Virus record (IMG/VR): IMGVR_UViG_3300042561_001378
Span: 1 to 64,000 of that record
DNA from: a virus
Length of the DNA stretch: 64,000 bases
Direction: 5' to 3' (one strand)
Below the pieces are notes generated by a model, which had not been told where the DNA came from, did not search any database, and saw nothing but the letters and a program-made list of their open reading frames with translations. Both the position numbers and the translations under genes were made by a program. Shown here piece by piece: positions 8,154-32,065 of this stretch. Position 1 is the first letter of the stretch. Each line of letters opens with the position of its first letter.

Positions 8154-8399
8154 TTAAACTTTGCGTGGGTAAGCAAGTCCTGATGCAGGTCGAACCGATC
8201 CGCCAGAATCCACAGGACGGCCTGACGCCATGGTTTTGATAAACACAGCCGTTAACGGGTTGTTTAAGGCGGCTTGAATATCCCCAATGTCTGTAACCGT
8301 CTCAAAAAATACCTGCGGACGAGCATCCATCAACTGCGTTGAGAATGTCCCCGCTGGCGTAGAAATGTTGGGATTGCTTGCTGCTGAGATCCAAGTCAT
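8154..8399 (-). CDS. Small virion-operon protein, 81 aa
   Basis: MTWISAASNPNISTPAGTF... with FFETVTDIGDIQAALNNPLTAVFIKTM. It lies between two structural genes, and its ATG overlaps the upstream stop as TAATG. Probably a small tail component; family not recognised. Confidence 0.5.
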   Translation of the reverse strand: MTWISAASNPNISTPAGTFSTQLMDARPQVFFETVTDIGDIQAALNNPLTAVFIKTMASGRPVDSGGSVRPASGLAYPRKV

Positions 8400-19533: not shown

Positions 19534-19832
19534 CCCCTATCTGGCGAGTTCGGCAAATGGTATCGACGCTGATTGAGCAAGACGAACTCAAGGCCAGGGC
19601 TAGCAGCTATGCGATCGCCCGCTTTGCCCTGACTCAAATCAGCCGCAAGGGCACCAAAATATCCATCGAAGACTTCATGCCCTACGCCGATCCCAACGCC
19701 GCGCAGAAGCAGGGTGAGGGTATCCCGGCCAAGACCGTGGCGATCATGCGGCAATTGGTCAAGGGGCGAGCGTTACCAGCTCGGGTGGAGGCAGCAGCAA
19801 TACGGGCATTAGGGGGAATGGGCGATGGCTGA
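19383..19832 (+). CDS. T-type extension reached by -1 frameshift
   Basis: Frame 0 opens right after a TAG at 19380-19382 and runs to 19832. Its protein (AFEREREFWDKCYFRIQSAGVQDPCYHWQEIGLTP, IWRVRQMVSTLIEQDELKARASSYAIARFALTQI...) is clearly coding-like from its first residues, well before the internal ATG at 19557. It has no convincing start of its own before that ATG, so it is expected as the C-terminal half of a G-GT fusion made by a -1 shift at 19392-19398. The stop overlaps the tape-measure start. Confidence 0.75.
   Translation, partial: GRNPFSRAQRILSECRTAFEREREFWDKCYFRIQSAGVQDPCYHWQEIGLTPIWRVRQMVSTLIEQDELKARASSYAIARFALTQISRKGTKISIEDFMPYADPNAAQKQGEGIPAKTVAIMRQLVKGRALPARVEAAAIRALGGMGDG
19392..19398 (+). 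promoter_or_regulatory. Slippery heptamer CCCTTTA for -1 frameshift
   Basis: C-CCT-TTA fits X-XXY-YYZ exactly in the chaperone frame, and slipping back one base gives CCC-TTT. It lies 10 bases after the stop that bounds the second frame, so nearly all of that frame is available to the fusion. Confidence 0.75.
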
Positions 19833-22800
19833 TTTAGGTGAACTCGTACTCAGGCTTAGGGTTGACAGTAGTCAGTACACCCGCGACCTACTCAGGGCCA
19901 GGGCCCAGGCTGCTGCGCTCAAAGATATCCGGGTTGGCCTCCGGCTTGACAATAGCCAGTACACCCGTGACTTACTCAAAGCCAGGACACAGGCTCAGTC
20001 GCTGAAAGATATCCGGGTTGGTCTACAGCTTGACAGTAGCCAATACACCCGCGACCTACTCAGTGCCAGAGCCCAGGCTGAAGCGCTCAAAGATATCCGG
20101 GTTAATCTCCGGGCTGAGGGCCTCGGGGGCGTTGATGCTGGCCTACAGAGAGTCGGAGCCGGTACCCGTGATGTGAGAACATCGTTTTCTGTCTTGCAGG
20201 GGGCCATCCAGGGCGCAGCCCAGGCCATCACCCAAAGCCTGATTCAGATCGGCGGGTCATTGCTAAAGCTCCCTCTCAATATTGTGGGTGGGTCGCTTAA
20301 TAGCTTTGCGGGATTAGAGACAGAGCTAGTAAAATTAGGCGCATTGTCCACCCTGGGCCGAGAGGGCATACAACCCATAGCCGATGAAATCCAGAGGCTT
20401 GGCCAAGTTTCTACGAAAACGCAGGTAGAAGTCGCCCAGGCCGCAAATACTTTGTCTACGCTAGGCGTATCGCCTGATGAGATTCAAAAACGATTGCCTG
20501 GTATAGTTGCGCTCTCAGAAGCAACTGGAGCCGGTTTAGTTGAAGCGGCTAAGCTTAGTACATCCGCAGCTACCATTTTTGGGTTTTCATCTGATGAAAT
20601 CGCAGATCGATTAGCATCTTTAGCGATTGACAGCGCTGCGGATGTTGGAGACGTTCAACAGCTTTTACAACAAACTAGCGGTATCTTTAATCAGTTAGGA
20701 GATTCAGCAGATCCGGACGAACTATTAGCTTTTTTTGCTACACTCCGCGATGCAGACATAAGCGCAGACGTGGGGGCTACAGGTTTAGCGTCAGTAATTG
20801 AAACATTAGTAGACCCCAAAAAAGCTGACGAATTAAAAGAGCTAGGAGTTAGCGCATTCGACGCAGAAGGCAATTTCCTGGGGTTTGAAACTGTACTCAG
20901 GCAATTGGCAGCAACGCAAAAAACCTTGAACCCTAAAGATTTCACAGGTAAACTTATTGGTACTTTTGGGGCTGGAGGTATTGAAGCAATTGCAGGAGGA
21001 CTAGGCGGTTTAGATACAAGCTTTAATAAAGTATTTAATGGACTAAAAAATTCTGCTGGCAAAACTGATGTAATTACAGAAGAGCTACAAAAAGGACTTC
21101 CAGCCGCTATAGAACAATTTGGCGGATCCCTAGATACGCTTGATGTTGCATTTGGTGCATCTATTGCATCTATTCAAGAAGGGTTATTACGACTAGGGAC
21201 AACGTTGCTTAATACCTTAAGCGAGTCCGACATTTTTGAACAGCTTACTACCGCGTCCAATGGTTTCTTTGAGGCACTATCAAGCAACGAAGGGTTTGTT
21301 GCAGAGCTAGGCAAAACCCTCGTTGCCACATTGGGATCAGTCCTTAACGCCATTGCATCCGTCGTCACTCGAATCACAAACGAATTTGTAGCTAACCCTG
21401 AAGAGATCCTGGCCCGTGTTCAAGGTTTTGTGACTCAAGCTGGAGTCGTGATCACTAACGCCATTCTCGGGGCCGGTGCTGCCTTTCAGTTTATCGTCCA
21501 AAACTTTGACGCCATCGTCGCCGGGGTGCAGGCCCTGGGGGTTGTCATTGCCGCCGCGATCGCAGGCAATGTCATTGCCGGGGTAGTCTCGTTTGGGACG
21601 ACCCTAGTCACCATCGCTACCACCATCATCCCCCTAGTTTCAGGGGCATTTACCGCGCTATCAGGCATCGTCTCCGGGCTATTGCTGGCATTCAAAGCGG
21701 GGGGCATTGCCGGGGTAGTGTCTAGCCTTGGCGCTACCTTCTCCCTGTTCGCGGCATCGTTGGCCCCTCTACTGCCCATCATTGCCGCCGTGGCTGGGGC
21801 GATCGCATTAATCGTCGTCGCGTTCAAGGCATTGCGGTCGGAGCGGGGCCAGGAAATTCTAGGTGCGATCGGGGCCAAGGCCACAGAATTGTTTGACTCA
21901 TTCCGCAACAGCGAACCCGTAAAGGCGTTCTTAAATCTGCTGGATTCAATCAGGGATCTAGGAGTCGCGCTCATCCCAGTTATCAAAAATGTAGCCGGAG
22001 AAATAATTCGACTTACTGGGGTTGGGATTGAAAATATAAAGTCAGCTTTTGCCTCAACGGGGATCAGCGTCAATGATATTTACAAAACATTGTTACTCAT
22101 AAATCCTATTGCTGCCGGTACAATTGCTCTTGCCAAAACATTGCTTTCAATCGTTACCGACATTCTAAATAAGACCGCCACTGTCATTGACAACCTCACC
22201 GCTGCTATCAGTGGGCCGAAGAAATTTGAAGTATCAGGAGCTGATGAACGGGCAGATACGATAAGGGAACAGGGCGTCAATCAGTTGACAGTAGCAGAGA
22301 AAACCGCTGCTGCTGCTAAACCCGATGCCGATAAACCCGATGCCGATAAAGCTGCTGCCGATAAAGCTGCTGCCGATAAAGCTGCCGCCGATAAAGCTGC
22401 CGCCGATAAAGCCGCTGCCGATAAAGCTGCTGCCAATAAAGCTGCTGCCAATAAAGCCGCCGCCGATGCCCTCGCCGCTGCTGAGAAAAAGGCTGAGGAC
22501 GACAAGAACGCCCGCCAGACCGCCTTTGACAATGCCCGCATTGCCCGTGACATTGCCGCCGAAGATGCCAAACTAGCCCGTCAACGCGCGTTTGACGATA
22601 CCAAACGCGCCAATGCGATTGCCCTAGAAGTCGAGATTGAGCGGCGCAAGATAGCGACTGAGCAGGCGATCGAGGACATCAAGGAAGAAGGGCGTATTCG
22701 GGAAGAGGCATTCAACAAAAAGCAAAATGAAGACAAACTAGCCTTCGAGGATGACCTGGCTGCTCGTCGCACTGCCGCTGAACGCCAGTTTGCTCTAGAC

Positions 22801-23574
22801 GAAGCTGGGTCACTAGACGAGCGGAACAAGCTAGTCGAGGGCTTTGCCGCCGAAGATCGCAAGGCTGCGGTACTGGCCCCCTTTGAGCAAGAACAGCGCG
22901 ACTTTGAGGCACAGCAACTAGAAGAACGCCGCATCTTTGAAGAACAGCAACGCGCCCTTGATGCCGAAGCTGAAGAACTTAAGCGCCAGTCTGAGCTAGA
23001 AATCAACGCCCTCAACCTTGATGCCAAAAATCAAGAGATTGCCCTAGAGCGTGACTTCCAAAACAATGAACGCACCCTTGAGCGCCAAGCCAAAGAACAG
23101 GAGCGGGCTAGGGAGGCATCTTTTAACGCCACCGAGCGCAGGCTAGATGAAGAATCTGCCCGCAGGATTGAGGCACTCAAGTCCGGCAACGACGCCGCCG
23201 CCGTCACTGCCTTCCGTCGGGGTGGCACCTTCGCCGCTGGCCAAAACATTCTCGCGGGTGAGGCTGGCCCAGAGCTACTCAAGGTCGGCGGTAAGCAAGC
23301 CCTGGTCACCGAACCCAGCCTCATGCGCTTCGACTCCCCTGGCCGCGTCACCAGCGCACCCTCCACCCGGCGTAAACTATCCCAGGGGCAACTGAGTAGG
23401 GCCGGGGCTGGGGGTGAGCTCAAGGCCATGCGGAAGGCCCTGGAGCGATCGCTAGCTAGACCCCCCGCCGACATCAACACCACTGTGCAGGTGCAAGGGC
23501 TCAGTGCTGACCAGGTACGGCGGCAATTGGCCATGCACCAGTCAGACCTATACCGCAGCCTAGGGGGCCTCTGA
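19825..23574 (+). CDS. Tape measure protein
   Basis: 1249 residues. Residues about 5-100 hold three tandem ~30-residue repeats ending in SQYTRDLL.AR.QA..LKDIRV. A TP901-type tape-measure core follows (SFAGLETELVKLGALSTLG...; AQAANTLSTLGVSPDEI; DVQQLLQQTSGIFNQLGD). Several long hydrophobic helices lie around residues 540-670 (VQALGVVIAAAIAGNVIAG; LLPIIAAVAGAIALIVVAF). Residues about 833-885 are an AAADK pentapeptide repeat, then a Glu/Lys/Arg-rich coiled coil. By analogy, the length sets that of the tail. TGATG overlap with the next gene. Confidence 0.9.
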   Translation: MADLGELVLRLRVDSSQYTRDLLRARAQAAALKDIRVGLRLDNSQYTRDLLKARTQAQSLKDIRVGLQLDSSQYTRDLLSARAQAEALKDIRVNLRAEGLGGVDAGLQRVGAGTRDVRTSFSVLQGAIQGAAQAITQSLIQIGGSLLKLPLNIVGGSLNSFAGLETELVKLGALSTLGREGIQPIADEIQRLGQVSTKTQVEVAQAANTLSTLGVSPDEIQKRLPGIVALSEATGAGLVEAAKLSTSAATIFGFSSDEIADRLASLAIDSAADVGDVQQLLQQTSGIFNQLGDSADPDELLAFFATLRDADISADVGATGLASVIETLVDPKKADELKELGVSAFDAEGNFLGFETVLRQLAATQKTLNPKDFTGKLIGTFGAGGIEAIAGGLGGLDTSFNKVFNGLKNSAGKTDVITEELQKGLPAAIEQFGGSLDTLDVAFGASIASIQEGLLRLGTTLLNTLSESDIFEQLTTASNGFFEALSSNEGFVAELGKTLVATLGSVLNAIASVVTRITNEFVANPEEILARVQGFVTQAGVVITNAILGAGAAFQFIVQNFDAIVAGVQALGVVIAAAIAGNVIAGVVSFGTTLVTIATTIIPLVSGAFTALSGIVSGLLLAFKAGGIAGVVSSLGATFSLFAASLAPLLPIIAAVAGAIALIVVAFKALRSERGQEILGAIGAKATELFDSFRNSEPVKAFLNLLDSIRDLGVALIPVIKNVAGEIIRLTGVGIENIKSAFASTGISVNDIYKTLLLINPIAAGTIALAKTLLSIVTDILNKTATVIDNLTAAISGPKKFEVSGADERADTIREQGVNQLTVAEKTAAAAKPDADKPDADKAAADKAAADKAAADKAAADKAAADKAAANKAAANKAAADALAAAEKKAEDDKNARQTAFDNARIARDIAAEDAKLARQRAFDDTKRANAIALEVEIERRKIATEQAIEDIKEEGRIREEAFNKKQNEDKLAFEDDLAARRTAAERQFALDEAGSLDERNKLVEGFAAEDRKAAVLAPFEQEQRDFEAQQLEERRIFEEQQRALDAEAEELKRQSELEINALNLDAKNQEIALERDFQNNERTLERQAKEQERAREASFNATERRLDEESARRIEALKSGNDAAAVTAFRRGGTFAAGQNILAGEAGPELLKVGGKQALVTEPSLMRFDSPGRVTSAPSTRRKLSQGQLSRAGAGGELKAMRKALERSLARPPADINTTVQVQGLSADQVRRQLAMHQSDLYRSLGGL

Positions 23575-24251: not shown

Positions 24252-24866
24252 ATGAAAACTGCCCAAGTTAAAATCACAGGCCAAGCACCCTACACTCAGT
24301 CTCGGTTCCACGGTGAAGCCAAGCTACCCCGTGAAGGTAGCGAAGATTACGAAAACCGGACATGGCCAGGGAAGGCCCACCTGAATGAGGCTGAACAGGT
24401 CACGATACCTGCGCTGGCTTTCAAAAAGTGCCTTGCAGAAGCTGCAAAGTATCTATCTGAACAGATCCCAGGCAAGGGCAAGGCCACCTATACCAAGCAC
24501 TTCCAGAGCGGGGTGATCGTGCTGACTGATAGCGTTGTCTCTTACAAGGGCCAGCCGGTCACCAAAGCCTTGCTTGACGTTCCCAAAAGCGGATATTACG
24601 GAAACAGAATGTTTGTCCCCTCTGACGGGGTGGCAGGTTCTGGTAAACGGGTGTTTCGCACATTCCCGACCGTTGCTGACGGCTGGGAATGTGTTGTTGA
24701 ATTCTTGATTATGGATGACATCATTACCCAGCCTGTCTTCCAGAAACACCTAACAATGGCTGGGATGTTGATTGGAGTCGGTGCCTTCCGGGTTCGTAAT
24801 GGCGGGGTGATGGGCCGGTTTAAGTCTGAAATTCTGAGTTGGACAGAAGACAAAGAGGTAGCATGA
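24252..24866 (+). CDS. RAMP/Cas7-like-featured phage protein beside the pentamer array
   Basis: 204 residues from ATG at 24252. It begins with a strand and 'TGQAPYTQSRFHGEAKLP'. VTIPALAFKKCLAEAAKYL (near 50-68) resembles the IPGSSLKGALR helix that opens RAMP domains. PGKGKATYTKHFQSGVIVL follows, then NRMFVPSDGVAGSGKRVFRTFP, and near the end IGVGAFRVRNGGVMGRFKSE, a Gly-rich loop as in RAMP folds. I know similar uncharacterised phage proteins (AFK..L.EAAK.L....PGKGK.T..KHF). RNA binding is an inference. ATGA couples it to the next gene, and the array begins directly after that one. Confidence 0.6.
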   Translation: MKTAQVKITGQAPYTQSRFHGEAKLPREGSEDYENRTWPGKAHLNEAEQVTIPALAFKKCLAEAAKYLSEQIPGKGKATYTKHFQSGVIVLTDSVVSYKGQPVTKALLDVPKSGYYGNRMFVPSDGVAGSGKRVFRTFPTVADGWECVVEFLIMDDIITQPVFQKHLTMAGMLIGVGAFRVRNGGVMGRFKSEILSWTEDKEVA

Positions 24867-25387
24867 TGGACGTTTTGACAGACAGCACCCCCGCCTTTGT
24901 GGGGAAACGCTCAATCTACACCCAGCTATTGATCCAGGCCATGCGGGATGTACCAGACGGGGAAACCTTCACCTACACCCAAGCCATGACCATCACTGGA
25001 CTGAGTGCAACCAAGACAAAAACCTATCTCCTTTCAGCGATCCAGTCGCTGTTGAGAGATTACGGCATTGTCTATAACTGTTGCCGAAACGTGGGATATA
25101 CCCGCTTAACGCCTGAAGAAGTGCCCACTGTAGCGAACACCAAAAACCTCACCAAGATGAGGGGAACCACTGGACGTTACAGGGATACCCTTGAAGCTGT
25201 AGACCCTGGCACCCTATCCCAAGAGGCCCAGACTAAGCACACCCTGGGAATGCTCAATGTCCACCTTATGGAGGGCGTCATTAGCCGCAAATCCCAGCGG
25301 GCGATTGGGAAACAGGTAGTGCAGTCAAAACCTGAACTGCCAGACAGAGACAGGATGATCGCCCTGTATAAAGGGCTGTTCTCCTAG
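24863..25387 (+). CDS. Winged-helix-like protein coupled to the RAMP-like gene
   Basis: 174 residues. ATG at 24863 overlaps the previous stop, with AGAGGTA as ribosome site. The first 100 residues (LIQAMRDVPDGETFTYTQAMTITGLSATKTKTYLLSAIQSLLRDYGIVYNCCRNVGYTRLTPEEVP) read as a winged helix: helix, turn, recognition helix, then a beta wing ending GYTRL. The second half (LTKMRGTTGRYRDTLEAVDPGTLSQEAQTKHTLGML) is helical. A DNA- or RNA-binding partner or regulator of the upstream protein is plausible. Its stop at 25385-25387 borders the repeat array. Confidence 0.65.
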   Translation: MMDVLTDSTPAFVGKRSIYTQLLIQAMRDVPDGETFTYTQAMTITGLSATKTKTYLLSAIQSLLRDYGIVYNCCRNVGYTRLTPEEVPTVANTKNLTKMRGTTGRYRDTLEAVDPGTLSQEAQTKHTLGMLNVHLMEGVISRKSQRAIGKQVVQSKPELPDRDRMIALYKGLFS

Positions 25388-25496
25388 GGGCAGATCAACT
25401 CAACTCATCTCGCATCTTCTCGTCTCCCCTCGACTCCTCTCATCTCTTCTCTCCTCTCCTCTGCTCGACTCTACTCCACTCTTCTCGACTCAACCG

Positions 25497-26901
25497 AACC
25501 CCGTCAGCGATGGCGGGGTTTCTCATGGGCGGGGGTGGGGGTATAATGAGGGGCAGATCAACTCGCATCGACTCTGCTCCCCTCATCTCAACTCGCCTCG
25601 CCTCGTCTCATCTCATCTCGACTCTTCTCGTCTCGCCTCAGCTCAGCACAAGGCAACTCAACCGAACCCCGTCAGCGATGGCGGGGTTTCTCATTGCGGG
25701 GGTATGGCATAATGGGGGGACAGCTCATCTCCACTCAACTCACCTCCTCTTAACTCGGCTCTTCTCGTCTCCGCTCTCCTCGTCTCCTCTCGACTCTTCT
25801 CGTCTCGCCTCAGCTCAGCACAAGGCGGCTCAACCAAACCCCGCCAGCGATGGCGGGGTTTCTCATTGCGGGGGTATGGCATAATGGGGGGACAACTCAA
25901 CTCTCCTCTCCTCCACTCGGCTCTGCTCCCCTCGCCTCTTCTCGACTCGACTCAACCGAACCCCGTCAGCGATGGCGGGGTTTCTCATGGCGGGGGGTGT
26001 GGCATAATGAGGGGACAACTCGTCTCAACTCCTCTCACCTCGGCTCGCATCTGCTCGTCTCTACTCATCTCTTCTCCCCTCATCTCGGCTCATCTCGACT
26101 CGACTCAACTCAGCTCATCTCTTCTCGTCTCGCCTCAGCTCAGCACAAGGCAGCTCAACCAAACCCCGTCAGCGATGGCGGGGTTTCTCATTACAGGGGT
26201 ATGGCATAATGGGGGGACATCTCAGCTCCGCTCATCTCCCCTCGACTCATCTCGTCTCGACTCGTTTCCTCTCCCCTCGACTCGACTCGACCAAACCCCG
26301 TCATTGCTGGCGGGGTTTCTCATTGCGGGGGTATGGCATAATGGGGGGACAACTCGCCTCGGATCGCCTCACCTCGGCTCAACTCGGCTCGTCTCAACTC
26401 CCCTCGACTCGACTCAACCGAACCCCGTCAGCGATGGCGGGGTTTCTCATGGCAGGGGTGTGGCATAATGGGGGGACAGCTCAGCTCATCTCAACTCCCC
26501 TCGCCTCTACTCACCTCGACTCACATCTGCTCGGCTCATCTCGTCTCGCCTCAGCTCAGCACAAGGCAGCTCAACCAAACCCCGTCAGCGATGGCGGGGT
26601 TTCTCATGGGCAGGGTATGGCATAATGAGGGGACATCTCAGCTCCGCTCGGCTCTGCTCTGCTCGGCTCGCCTCGGCTCATCTCGCCTCACCTCGCCTCT
26701 GCTCATCTCGACTCAACCGAACCCCGTCAGCAATGGCGGGGTTTCTCGTGGGCGGGGTATGGCATAATGGGGGGACAGCTCATCTCGACTCGTCTCGGCT
26801 CAGCTCGTCTCCACTCGACTCCGCTCGCCTCCTCTCGACTCATCTCGACTCCTCTCCGCTCTTCTCGACTCAACCAAACCCCGTCAGTGATGGCGGGGTT
26901 T
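25497..26901 (+). terminator. Ten array hairpins (AACCCCG...CGGGGTT)
   Basis: All ten are nearly identical, including the loop (TCAGCGATGG with few changes). Some changes sit in the loop (TCATTGCTGG at 26294) and one in the stem keeps pairing (CCGCC at 25837). The stem resembles the free-standing terminator at 61530 (AACCCCGTCATGGTGGCGGG), which ends in five Ts; in the array only TTTCTCAT follows, so termination may be partial. Confidence 0.75.
25522..26768 (+). promoter_or_regulatory. Nine array linkers with extended -10 boxes
   Basis: Linkers read GGG-TATGGCATAATGGGGGGAC or close variants; the first has a perfect TATAAT. The TG-G-CATAAT arrangement is an extended -10. The boxes lie at 25542, 25708, 25880, 26003, 26205, 26337, 26464, 26621 and 26763. 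No -35 is evident. Transcripts would begin at the G run and enter the pentamer tract directly. Confidence 0.6.
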
Positions 26902-27135
26902 CTCATTGCGCCACTGCCACACCACCCCAGGCCGTCGCGGGCTTTCCCCTGTCCCCAGATCCAGCACCTCGACCTCGACCCCGCCCGACCTCAGCACTAC
27001 AGCATCGACACACCACCGCCCCACCAGCAGGCTCATCCCCGGTGGGTACAGATAAACCCAGGGGCACCATACCGCCAGCCCCCAGCGATCGCACCGCAGT
27101 CCCCATCGTTCGGCCTGGCCCTTTTCCATACTCAT
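26884..27135 (-). CDS. Small hypothetical protein, 83 aa
   Basis: ATGA overlap with the gene at 27132 supports translation. MSMEKGQAERWGLRCDRWGLAVWCPW..., VDAVVLRSGGVEVEVLDLGTG; Trp- and Val-rich. Its last codons run into the last hairpin of the array, so transcripts of the two meet head-on. Family not recognised. Confidence 0.5.
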   Translation of the reverse strand: MSMEKGQAERWGLRCDRWGLAVWCPWVYLYPPGMSLLVGRWCVDAVVLRSGGVEVEVLDLGTGESPRRPGVVWQWRNEKPRHH

Positions 27136-30805: not shown

Positions 30806-32065
30806 TTAGTAACCTCCTGTAACGGTGATCGTCCAGCCCCGCCCCCGCATGGCATTAATAGCCGCATTACCTGTAGCAGATGGGGCACTGCCACCGCTCT
30901 GGTTAAAGGTGCCGTTGCTGGTGTTGTTGGAGTTAATCGATACCAGGATGTTGTCAATGCTGCCTTGAGTTAGGGCTGTATTTGTGAATGAGTTGGTAAA
31001 GTTGGTGGCTGAGCAACCATTGAAAAAGCTTGCCGGAAATGTAGTTAGCCCTGTGCAACCACGCCAAGCCTCACTAAAGGTTGTTCCGGCTGCTGTATTG
31101 ATTAATGGGAATGAAGTTAGCCCTGTGCAACCTTGCCAAGTAGCAAAAAAGGTTGTTCCGGCTGCTGTATTGATTAATGGAAATGTAGTTAGCCCTGAGC
31201 AAACACGCCAAGCCTCACTAAAGGTTGTTCCGGCTGCTGTATTGATTAATGGGAATGAAGTTAGCCCTGAGCAGCCATTCCAAGCACTAAAAAAGCTTGT
31301 TCCGGCTGCTGTATTGATCAATGGAAATGAAGTTAGCCCTGAGCAATTTCGCCAAGCATTACTAAAGTTTGTTGCGGCTGCTGTATTGATCAATGGAAAT
31401 GAAGTTAGCCCTGAGCAGCCATTCCAAGCACTAAAAAAGCTTGTTCCGGCTGCTGTATTGATTAATGGAAATGAAGTTAGAAAACTAAAATCTCTGAAGT
31501 AGTTTAAAAAGCTCGTAATGCTTGCGAAGTCATTATCTACGGCTCCTTCTGCCACCACAAACGCTTTAATCCGGCCAATGTCTGCGCTGTCAAACGCGCC
31601 CGAAACCCAGTGGATCATCCCTGGGATATTCCGCACAGTTAGCGATGCTGGGATATTGCCGATAGAATTTAATATTCCGGCATTGGTAGCTATTACAATA
31701 TTCGCCCCAGTAGCAGCGGTAGGGCTACCCTGTAGTGTTTTGGTGTAGTCTCCCACTAACCTGGTAGGGCTCGCAGCCAAGGTAGGACGGTTTACAGAAT
31801 TGCTCTGAGTCCAGGTTCGTGCCACCGCATTATCTTTAATCGCCGCTACAGCATCGCCTGTGAGTGCTGGTACGGTTGCCGCAGTATCGCTAAAGGCGGC
31901 AAAGGCATCTAGCCAAATATTAGCTTTGGCAAAGCTGGCGATCGTGGCTTGATCTATCCAGCCCGCAGACGATCTCCGCCCCGCAGGCAGGGCCGTGAGA
32001 GCGGAGAAGTTGAGGCCCGCCGCCCCCGATCGCACCAACCCCAACCCGAGTCCCATGCTTGGCAT
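30806..32065 (-). CDS. Virion protein with tandem BspA-like repeats
   Basis: 419 residues. Between about residues 195 and 350 there are seven repeats of roughly 24 residues with the core LTSFPLINTAAGT.F..AW..CSG. This LxxLP.. pattern, with a conserved Cys, is that of BspA/DUF285-type leucine-rich surface repeats. The DNA repeats (72 bp) are almost identical, so copy number can change by recombination. The C-terminal cap (NAINAMRGRGWTITVTGGY) is also usual for these proteins. Last structural gene of the head-side operon; likely an exposed binding protein. Confidence 0.75.
   Translation of the reverse strand: MPSMGLGLGLVRSGAAGLNFSALTALPAGRRSSAGWIDQATIASFAKANIWLDAFAAFSDTAATVPALTGDAVAAIKDNAVARTWTQSNSVNRPTLAASPTRLVGDYTKTLQGSPTAATGANIVIATNAGILNSIGNIPASLTVRNIPGMIHWVSGAFDSADIGRIKAFVVAEGAVDNDFASITSFLNYFRDFSFLTSFPLINTAAGTSFFSAWNGCSGLTSFPLINTAAATNFSNAWRNCSGLTSFPLINTAAGTSFFSAWNGCSGLTSFPLINTAAGTTFSEAWRVCSGLTTFPLINTAAGTTFFATWQGCTGLTSFPLINTAAGTTFSEAWRGCTGLTTFPASFFNGCSATNFTNSFTNTALTQGSIDNILVSINSNNTSNGTFNQSGGSAPSATGNAAINAMRGRGWTITVTGGY

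What the first reader, a model, noticed from the sequence alone, without database searches (positions are those of the whole stretch)
25389..26905. Tandem array of ten small-RNA-like units made of NNCTC pentamers kept in exact 5-nt register
Seen directly: each unit is a tract of 12-25 pentamers NNCTC, where CTC is fixed and the two leading bases vary, ended by one nearly invariant hairpin and followed by a linker with an extended -10. Hairpin starts are 168, 172, 122, 203, 132, 127, 157, 142 and 157 bp apart. Seven of nine are 2 mod 5; the other two are explained exactly by linkers longer by 6 and 1 nt. So every tract is a multiple of five, although none of the spacing keeps a reading frame. 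Random slippage in a repeat would not preserve free dinucleotides and fixed CTC together over ten units. I know no described element of this design. Inference: promoter-tract-terminator units give short RNAs whose CUC steps, every 5 nt, are bound by a repeating protein or pair with GAG-containing targets.
Basis: partly seen in the sequence, partly recalled or inferred. Interest (0 to 1): 0.95.

Follow-up and report, generated by a model that had tools for sequence, protein, structure and literature searches.

The report
Phage VIPR guide array, CTC code
The strange CTC-every-five-bases array is a set of ten guide RNAs of a VIPR system, a CRISPR-like weapon that viruses of bacteria seem to use against each other. 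It was first described in a 2026 preprint, and here it uses a different fixed triplet from the GG-pyrimidine named there.

Summary
In detail: ten tracts of NNCTC pentamers, each ended by one near-invariant hairpin, all in 5-nt register. It is not a wholly unknown element. The two genes directly upstream are a RAMP-fold protein (24252-24866) and a winged-helix-like partner (24863-25387). A profile of the first protein's family matches the solved 'SUSP1 Vipr protein' (PDB 36pp, E 2e-9), and its predicted fold matches Csm3/Cas7 CRISPR backbone proteins. The locus is therefore a VIPR system (preprint PMC13142463): Vipr, a vap gene and vrRNA guides whose free dinucleotides pair with DNA. New here: the fixed triplet is CTC, not GGY. 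Among 80 viral loci found from the protein alone, 46 carry 5-nt-periodic tracts (period 6: one; periods 4, 7, 8, 9 and shuffles: none). The triplet switches between lineages (GGC, CTC, CGC, GAC, GTC, GTT, CAC, AGT) and tracks residues of the Vipr 'SPYSQS..H' motif. Two loci with identical Vipr proteins keep the triplet and replace the dinucleotides. No natural target was found, so DNA targeting by the CTC form is inferred. Verdict: a new variant of a very recently described kind.

The parts
24252..24866 (+). vipr gene: RAMP-fold guide-binding protein, 204 aa (ATG 24252; the open frame extends back to 24204)
   Evidence: PHROG 4652; family profile hits PDB 36pp SUSP1 Vipr, E 2.2e-9; AF2 pLDDT 94; Foldseek best hits are type VII Cas7 and Csm3, E 6e-8 and weaker
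24863..25387 (+). vap gene: winged-helix-like partner, overlaps the vipr stop codon (ATGA)
   Evidence: PHROG 5926; homologue near vipr in 69 of 80 related loci; AF2 pLDDT 93; only weak fold matches, mostly winged-helix regulators, none E<=1e-3
25390..25523 (+). vrRNA unit 1: 20-pentamer tract plus tail hairpin
25524..25553 (+). linker 1 with TATAAT -10-like box at 25542-25547
25554..25691 (+). vrRNA unit 2 (carries the shared 3' block)
25721..25863 (+). vrRNA unit 3 (carries the shared 3' block); preceded by TATGGCATAATGGGGGGACA linker
25893..25985 (+). vrRNA unit 4 (12 NNCTC)
26016..26188 (+). vrRNA unit 5 (28 pentamers; looks like a fusion of two units, internal GACTCGACTCAA end)
   Evidence: fusion is inference
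26218..26320 (+). vrRNA unit 6
26350..26447 (+). vrRNA unit 7
   Evidence: tail folds at -18.5 kcal/mol, z -4.05
26477..26604 (+). vrRNA unit 8 (carries the shared 3' block)
26634..26746 (+). vrRNA unit 9
26776..26903 (+). vrRNA unit 10

Best explanation
The locus is a VIPR system of a tailed phage, probably of a cyanobacterium, with a CTC/NN code in place of GGY/NN. Each of ten units is transcribed as a short vrRNA: a tract of (NNCUC)n followed by a constant hairpin tail. Vipr, a RAMP, would coat the tract with one subunit per 5 nt, holding the fixed CUC and leaving each NN free. The NN together would pair with double-stranded DNA that follows NNxNNxNN (1-nt skip), so that the complex, helped by the winged-helix Vap, blocks transcription of a rival phage or other mobile element. 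Shown here: anatomy, homology, predicted fold, fixed triplet against hypervariable NN, orientation. Taken from the preprint on GGY relatives: RNA production, RNA-protein complex, 1-nt skip rule, repression. Inferred: that the CTC form behaves the same way, and who its targets are.
For: The period-5 array is real. Unbiased clustering of open frames from contigs that share high-entropy CTC tracts picked one protein family, adjacent to the tract in 6 otherwise mostly unrelated phages. The profile of that family hits PDB 36pp 'SUSP1 Vipr protein'; the AF2 model (pLDDT 94.4) is Csm3/Cas7-like. Searching with the protein alone, 46 of 80 viral loci have period-5 tracts (98 tracts), against 0 loci at periods 4, 7, 8, 9, one at period 6 and 0 in shuffles. 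All but one of those tracts run in the vipr sense. Named phages with homologues carry tracts too: wV8 (GGT), LESphi2 (GGC), LittleE (GGC). With Vipr 100% identical, L159 and L160 keep GAC in every pentamer while NN and tract length differ. A vap homologue is present in 69 of 80 loci. The published description matches the architecture.
Against: The triplet is CTC, not the GGY of the published text; the clause 'or a related consensus' could not be checked because the supplement is not readable here. Several window tracts (17-28 pentamers) exceed the published 9-16. [quoted passage not shown] No transcript data exist for this phage.
Confidence: 0.92

Rival explanations
1. The RNAs are a protein sponge: they titrate an RNA-binding protein through repeated CUC, as CsrB does for CsrA, and NN is free because it is never read.
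For: Fixed motif with free spacers, many copies, hairpin ends.
Against: A sponge does not explain why dinucleotides are replaced between phages with identical protein and near-identical flanks, nor the homology to a guide-RNA-binding RAMP shown in the preprint to use NN for pairing.
Confidence: 0.04
2. The other strand is used: (GAGNN)n is a TRAP-type binding site, the RNA being read by an 11-subunit TRAP ring.
For: GAG every 5 nt is the known TRAP site design (own knowledge), and (GAGNN)n stretches of that look occur on one strand in Alicyclobacillus and Limnochordia contigs.
Against: No TRAP (PF02081) in this or the ten other tract-bearing records; hairpin tails and -10 boxes lie on the CTC strand; related phages use GGC, GAC, GTC and others in the same sense.
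Confidence: 0.01
3. The tracts are hypervariable low-complexity coding or slippage repeats.
For: NNCTC contains no stop codon in any + frame, so frames through the array stay open.
Against: Unit spacing keeps no reading frame; slippage gives uniform units, whereas NN entropy is 3.78 bits with 167 of 184 CTC. Simple pentamer repeats also exist in the collections but have near-zero NN entropy.
Confidence: 0.02

Closest known systems
VIPR systems (Vipr + vap + vrRNA; phage SUSP1, Pseudomonas fulva prophage), preprint PMC13142463
   Same: RAMP protein of ~200 aa, adjacent predicted DNA-binding gene, guide RNAs of fixed-triplet/free-dinucleotide pentamers, constant 3' structured tail, phage-borne
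   Different: Triplet CTC not GGY; ten units in one array; tracts of 12-28 pentamers against 9-16; tail hairpin of its own sequence; targets unknown
Class 1 CRISPR backbone proteins (Csm3/Cas7)
   Same: Same fold class by Foldseek; filament on guide RNA expected
   Different: About 6-nt spacing and contiguous guides in CRISPR; no CRISPR array or further cas genes seen beside this locus
TIGR-Tas arrays (PMC12045711)
   Same: Phage-borne tandem guide arrays that target DNA
   Different: Tas proteins have a Nop domain (own knowledge) and the guides are not made of pentamers
CsrB/RsmZ sponge RNAs; TRAP binding sites
   Same: Regularly repeated protein-binding triplets
   Different: No free-dinucleotide guide code (own knowledge); no TRAP (PF02081) found in these records

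Membership tests
VIPR | Vipr: RAMP-fold protein with RRM core and glycine-rich loop | tested here: met
   Profile hit to 36pp SUSP1 Vipr E 2.2e-9; AF2 plus Foldseek to Csm3/Cas7; conserved GIGRFRPRNNG.GRF-type loop. The thumb domain was not examined separately.
VIPR | vap gene next to vipr | tested here: met
   24863-25387; homologues in 69 of 80 loci; winged-helix-like model. Which vap class of the paper it belongs to could not be checked.
VIPR | vrRNA tract of pentamers with a fixed triplet and hypervariable dinucleotides | tested here: met
VIPR | Triplet is GGY in the strict form | tested here: not met
   CTC in 167 of 184 pentamers. The paper allows 'a related consensus', so strict GGY is not defining; one protein tree holds GGC, CTC, CGC and GAC members.
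VIPR | Invariant structured 3' tail | tested here: met
   Ten near-identical hairpins; tail z-score -4.05
VIPR | Carried by phages | tested here: met
   78-kb virus record with portal, terminase, capsid and tape measure genes
VIPR | NN pair with DNA under a 1-nt skip rule | tested here: inconclusive
   No target found
VIPR | vrRNA expressed and bound by Vipr | not testable with these tools
   Needs RNA sequencing and pull-down
TRAP regulation | TRAP protein (PF02081) | tested here: not met
   0 of 11 tract-bearing virus records
Known RNA families (Rfam 15) | Match above gathering score | tested here: not met
   None in the window or 12 related loci

The most novel reading that the evidence does not exclude
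The fixed triplet of VIPR guides is itself an evolvable lock-and-key. Lineages have switched repeatedly among GGC, GGT, GAC, GTC, GTT, CGC, CTC, CAC and AGT (always ending in a pyrimidine) through a few residues of the Vipr SPYSQS..H motif. This would give mutually orthogonal Vipr/vrRNA pairs, so that co-infecting phages cannot use or be confused by each other's guides.
Probability: 0.5. Interest if true: 0.8.

Novelty: new variant of a known kind. Interest (0 to 1): 0.66.

Why it matters
VIPR is proposed as the ancestor of CRISPR effector complexes. Within one Vipr family the triplet presumed to be read by the protein changes while the period of 5 and the free dinucleotides stay. That gives a natural series for working out how RAMPs read guide RNA, and possibly a set of orthogonal programmable DNA binders. 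It also identifies PHROG 4652 (so far 'unknown function') as Vipr and PHROG 5926 as a linked vap in many environmental phages.

Tried and rejected
TRAP site on the other strand: no TRAP protein. Known RNA family: none. Pfam and NCBIfam: no hit to either protein. Simple pentamer microsatellites: separated by dinucleotide entropy. The exact window hairpin and end motif occurs in no other viral contig. Target search under the 1-nt skip rule: held DNA with skips 0, 1, 2 as control (the top skip-1 hits for guides 1, 9 and 10 lie in loci that were fetched with parts of those guides, so they are no evidence); viral scans with parts of guides 1, 10 and 9 gave hits whose remaining positions match at most 11 of 24, 11 of 22 and 4 of 14; genomes of the phylum around G011 with guides 1 and 5 gave only 3-mismatch hits. 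Residue-triplet correlation: the rule 'residue 15 not S/T if and only if the middle base is A' held 5/5 vs 0/34 in the first set, but only 3 of 5 GAC loci in a second set obey it, with 0 of 13 exceptions on the other side. It is a strong association, not a strict code, and the tree gives too few independent switches on well-supported branches for a formal sign test.

Full report
OBSERVATION. The window is bases 1-64000 of a 78,143-base virus record. Between 25389 and 26905 there are ten tracts of NNCTC pentamers, each ended by a hairpin of the form AACCCCGYCAGCGATGGCGGGGTTT, with small changes in the loop of three units. CTC holds 167 of 184 pentamers, while all 16 dinucleotides occur (entropy 3.78 bits). 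The longest exact run is 19 pentamers, against 2 elsewhere in the window and at most 5 in 500 dinucleotide-preserving shuffles. Nothing comparable is found at periods 4, 6, 7 or 8.

RELATIVES. A scan of the viral collection for ten CTC at 5-nt spacing gave 63 stretches. Most are uniform microsatellites, but about eight have high-entropy dinucleotides, and a second scan added one more, L073. Their tracts usually start CG(N)CTC and end CTCAAC, and often lie just before a hairpin. Clustering all open frames of those contigs showed one protein family next to the tract in six otherwise mostly unrelated phages (only G003 and G006 share many genes). In the window this is 24204/24252-24866, in PHROG 4652, with no Pfam or NCBIfam match.

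INDEPENDENT TEST. Searching with that protein alone gave 80 viral loci (284 relatives in all). Without using CTC, 46 of the 80 carry tracts in which some fixed triplet recurs every 5 nt with variable dinucleotides (98 tracts). Periods 4, 7, 8 and 9 give none, period 6 gives one, and shuffled loci give none. Period 10 hits are taken to be the same tracts counted at double period (inference). The triplet differs by lineage: of 39 distinct labelled proteins, GGC 14, CTC 8, CGC 7, GAC 4, AGT 2, GTC 2, GTT 1, CAC 1; phage wV8 uses GGT, LESphi2 and LittleE use GGC. All but one of the 98 tracts run in the vipr sense; one in L184 (contig G006) runs on the opposite strand, and contig G002 also has a tract on the strand opposite its vipr gene. 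A second gene, the window's 24863-25387 (PHROG 5926), has homologues in 69 of the 80 loci.

IDENTITY. The family profile matches one solved structure, 36pp 'SUSP1 Vipr protein' (E 2.2e-9); the window's protein alone, without the profile, does not reach it. AlphaFold2 gives pLDDT 94.4, and Foldseek finds 166 PDB chains at E<=0.001, led by type VII Cas7 and Csm3. The only paper held on it, a preprint of April 2026 (PMC13142463), describes VIPR: a RAMP protein, a vap gene, and vrRNAs of GGY/NN pentamers with a constant structured tail. The NN pair with double-stranded DNA under a 1-nt skip rule, repressing competing phages and satellites. The window's locus fits the architectural features tested, except the strict triplet. 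The text speaks of GGY 'or a related consensus'; whether CTC is included there could not be read.

HYPERVARIABILITY. Loci L159 and L160 have identical Vipr proteins and near-identical flanks. Every listed pentamer keeps GAC, but the upstream tract is 34 pentamers in one and 26 in the other with different dinucleotides; the last three (AA AA GA) are shared. L173, L177 and L182 show the same with GGC. The constant last dinucleotides suggest a short handle next to the tail (inference); in several window units the same place reads GACTC(GACTC)AACC.

TRIPLET AND PROTEIN. On a tree of 39 Vipr proteins the triplet needs 13 changes (shuffled mean 22.6, never as low in 200), so it is inherited but switches often; L170 (GAC) sits inside a well-supported GGC group. 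In the motif SPYSQS[KR].H, residue 15 is A/G/L in all five members whose middle base is A and S/T in all 34 others (Fisher p 1.7e-6), and residue 20 is His in all 16 members whose first base is C but only 4 of 23 others. In a second set of loci, 3 of 5 GAC members obey the first rule and 0 of 13 others break it. I read this as evidence that the motif contacts the triplet. It is not a proven code: related sequences inflate such counts, and these positions were picked from all columns.

TARGETS. [quoted passage not shown] Coverage was limited to a few guides and collections, so this is inconclusive. Only 1 of 386 genomes of the phylum around G011 gave a weak Vipr match. G011 is the genome of Candidatus Obscuribacter, and its placement in Cyanobacteriota is own knowledge. 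The host of the window's phage is likely a cyanobacterium: 50 copies of GCGATCGC in 78 kb, the HIP1 motif (own knowledge).

CONTEXT. The module lies just downstream of a tape measure gene (19825-23574) in a tailed phage with portal, terminase and major head genes. Units 2-10 follow linkers with TATAAT or CATAAT boxes, so each unit could have its own promoter; no terminator with a U-run was found, so termination at the hairpin is inferred.

VERDICT. Real, and explained: a VIPR guide array with a variant triplet. What remains of high interest is the changing triplet and its link to the protein.

Noticed in passing
L057/L039 (G007 136256-136702, G004), L050 (G005 ~8256-8308), L073 (G009): High-entropy CTC tracts in virus contigs where no Vipr of this family was found (profile search of the open frames). 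They may be orphan guide arrays or belong to another Vipr type; in G007 they sit among structural genes, on the opposite strand.
   Followed up: partly
L312, L313, L319: Loci with seven to ten tracts beside vipr (GGC or GAC), larger arrays than most; L153 has one 38-pentamer GGC stretch 4.3 kb downstream.
   Followed up: no
window 25389-26905, units 2, 3, 5, 8: Four units share the same 3' block with two non-CTC pentamers (AGCAC AAGGC), and unit 5 looks like a fusion of two units, suggesting recombination between units.
   Followed up: no
L100 7424-7490, L094 1989-2030, L082 2187-2220: Alicyclobacillus and Limnochordia contigs carry (GAGNN)n on one strand, perhaps TRAP-binding leaders; not verified.
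   Followed up: no
L218 4456-4513 and 5849-5906 (phage wV8): Repeats annotated only as DR_4 in a Felix O1-type phage flank the vipr-vap pair, abut or overlap GGT/NN tracts and look like vrRNA tails.
   Followed up: partly
window 31035-31480; 22306-22467; 19862-20103: Other tandem repeats: a 72/144-bp repeat of unknown role, and 15-bp and 84-bp repeats inside the tape measure gene.
   Followed up: no
L261 (G021 C118:4291-4674): Weak Vipr match (E 2e-6) with an internal TGA in a genome of the phylum around G011, perhaps a decayed prophage copy.
   Followed up: no
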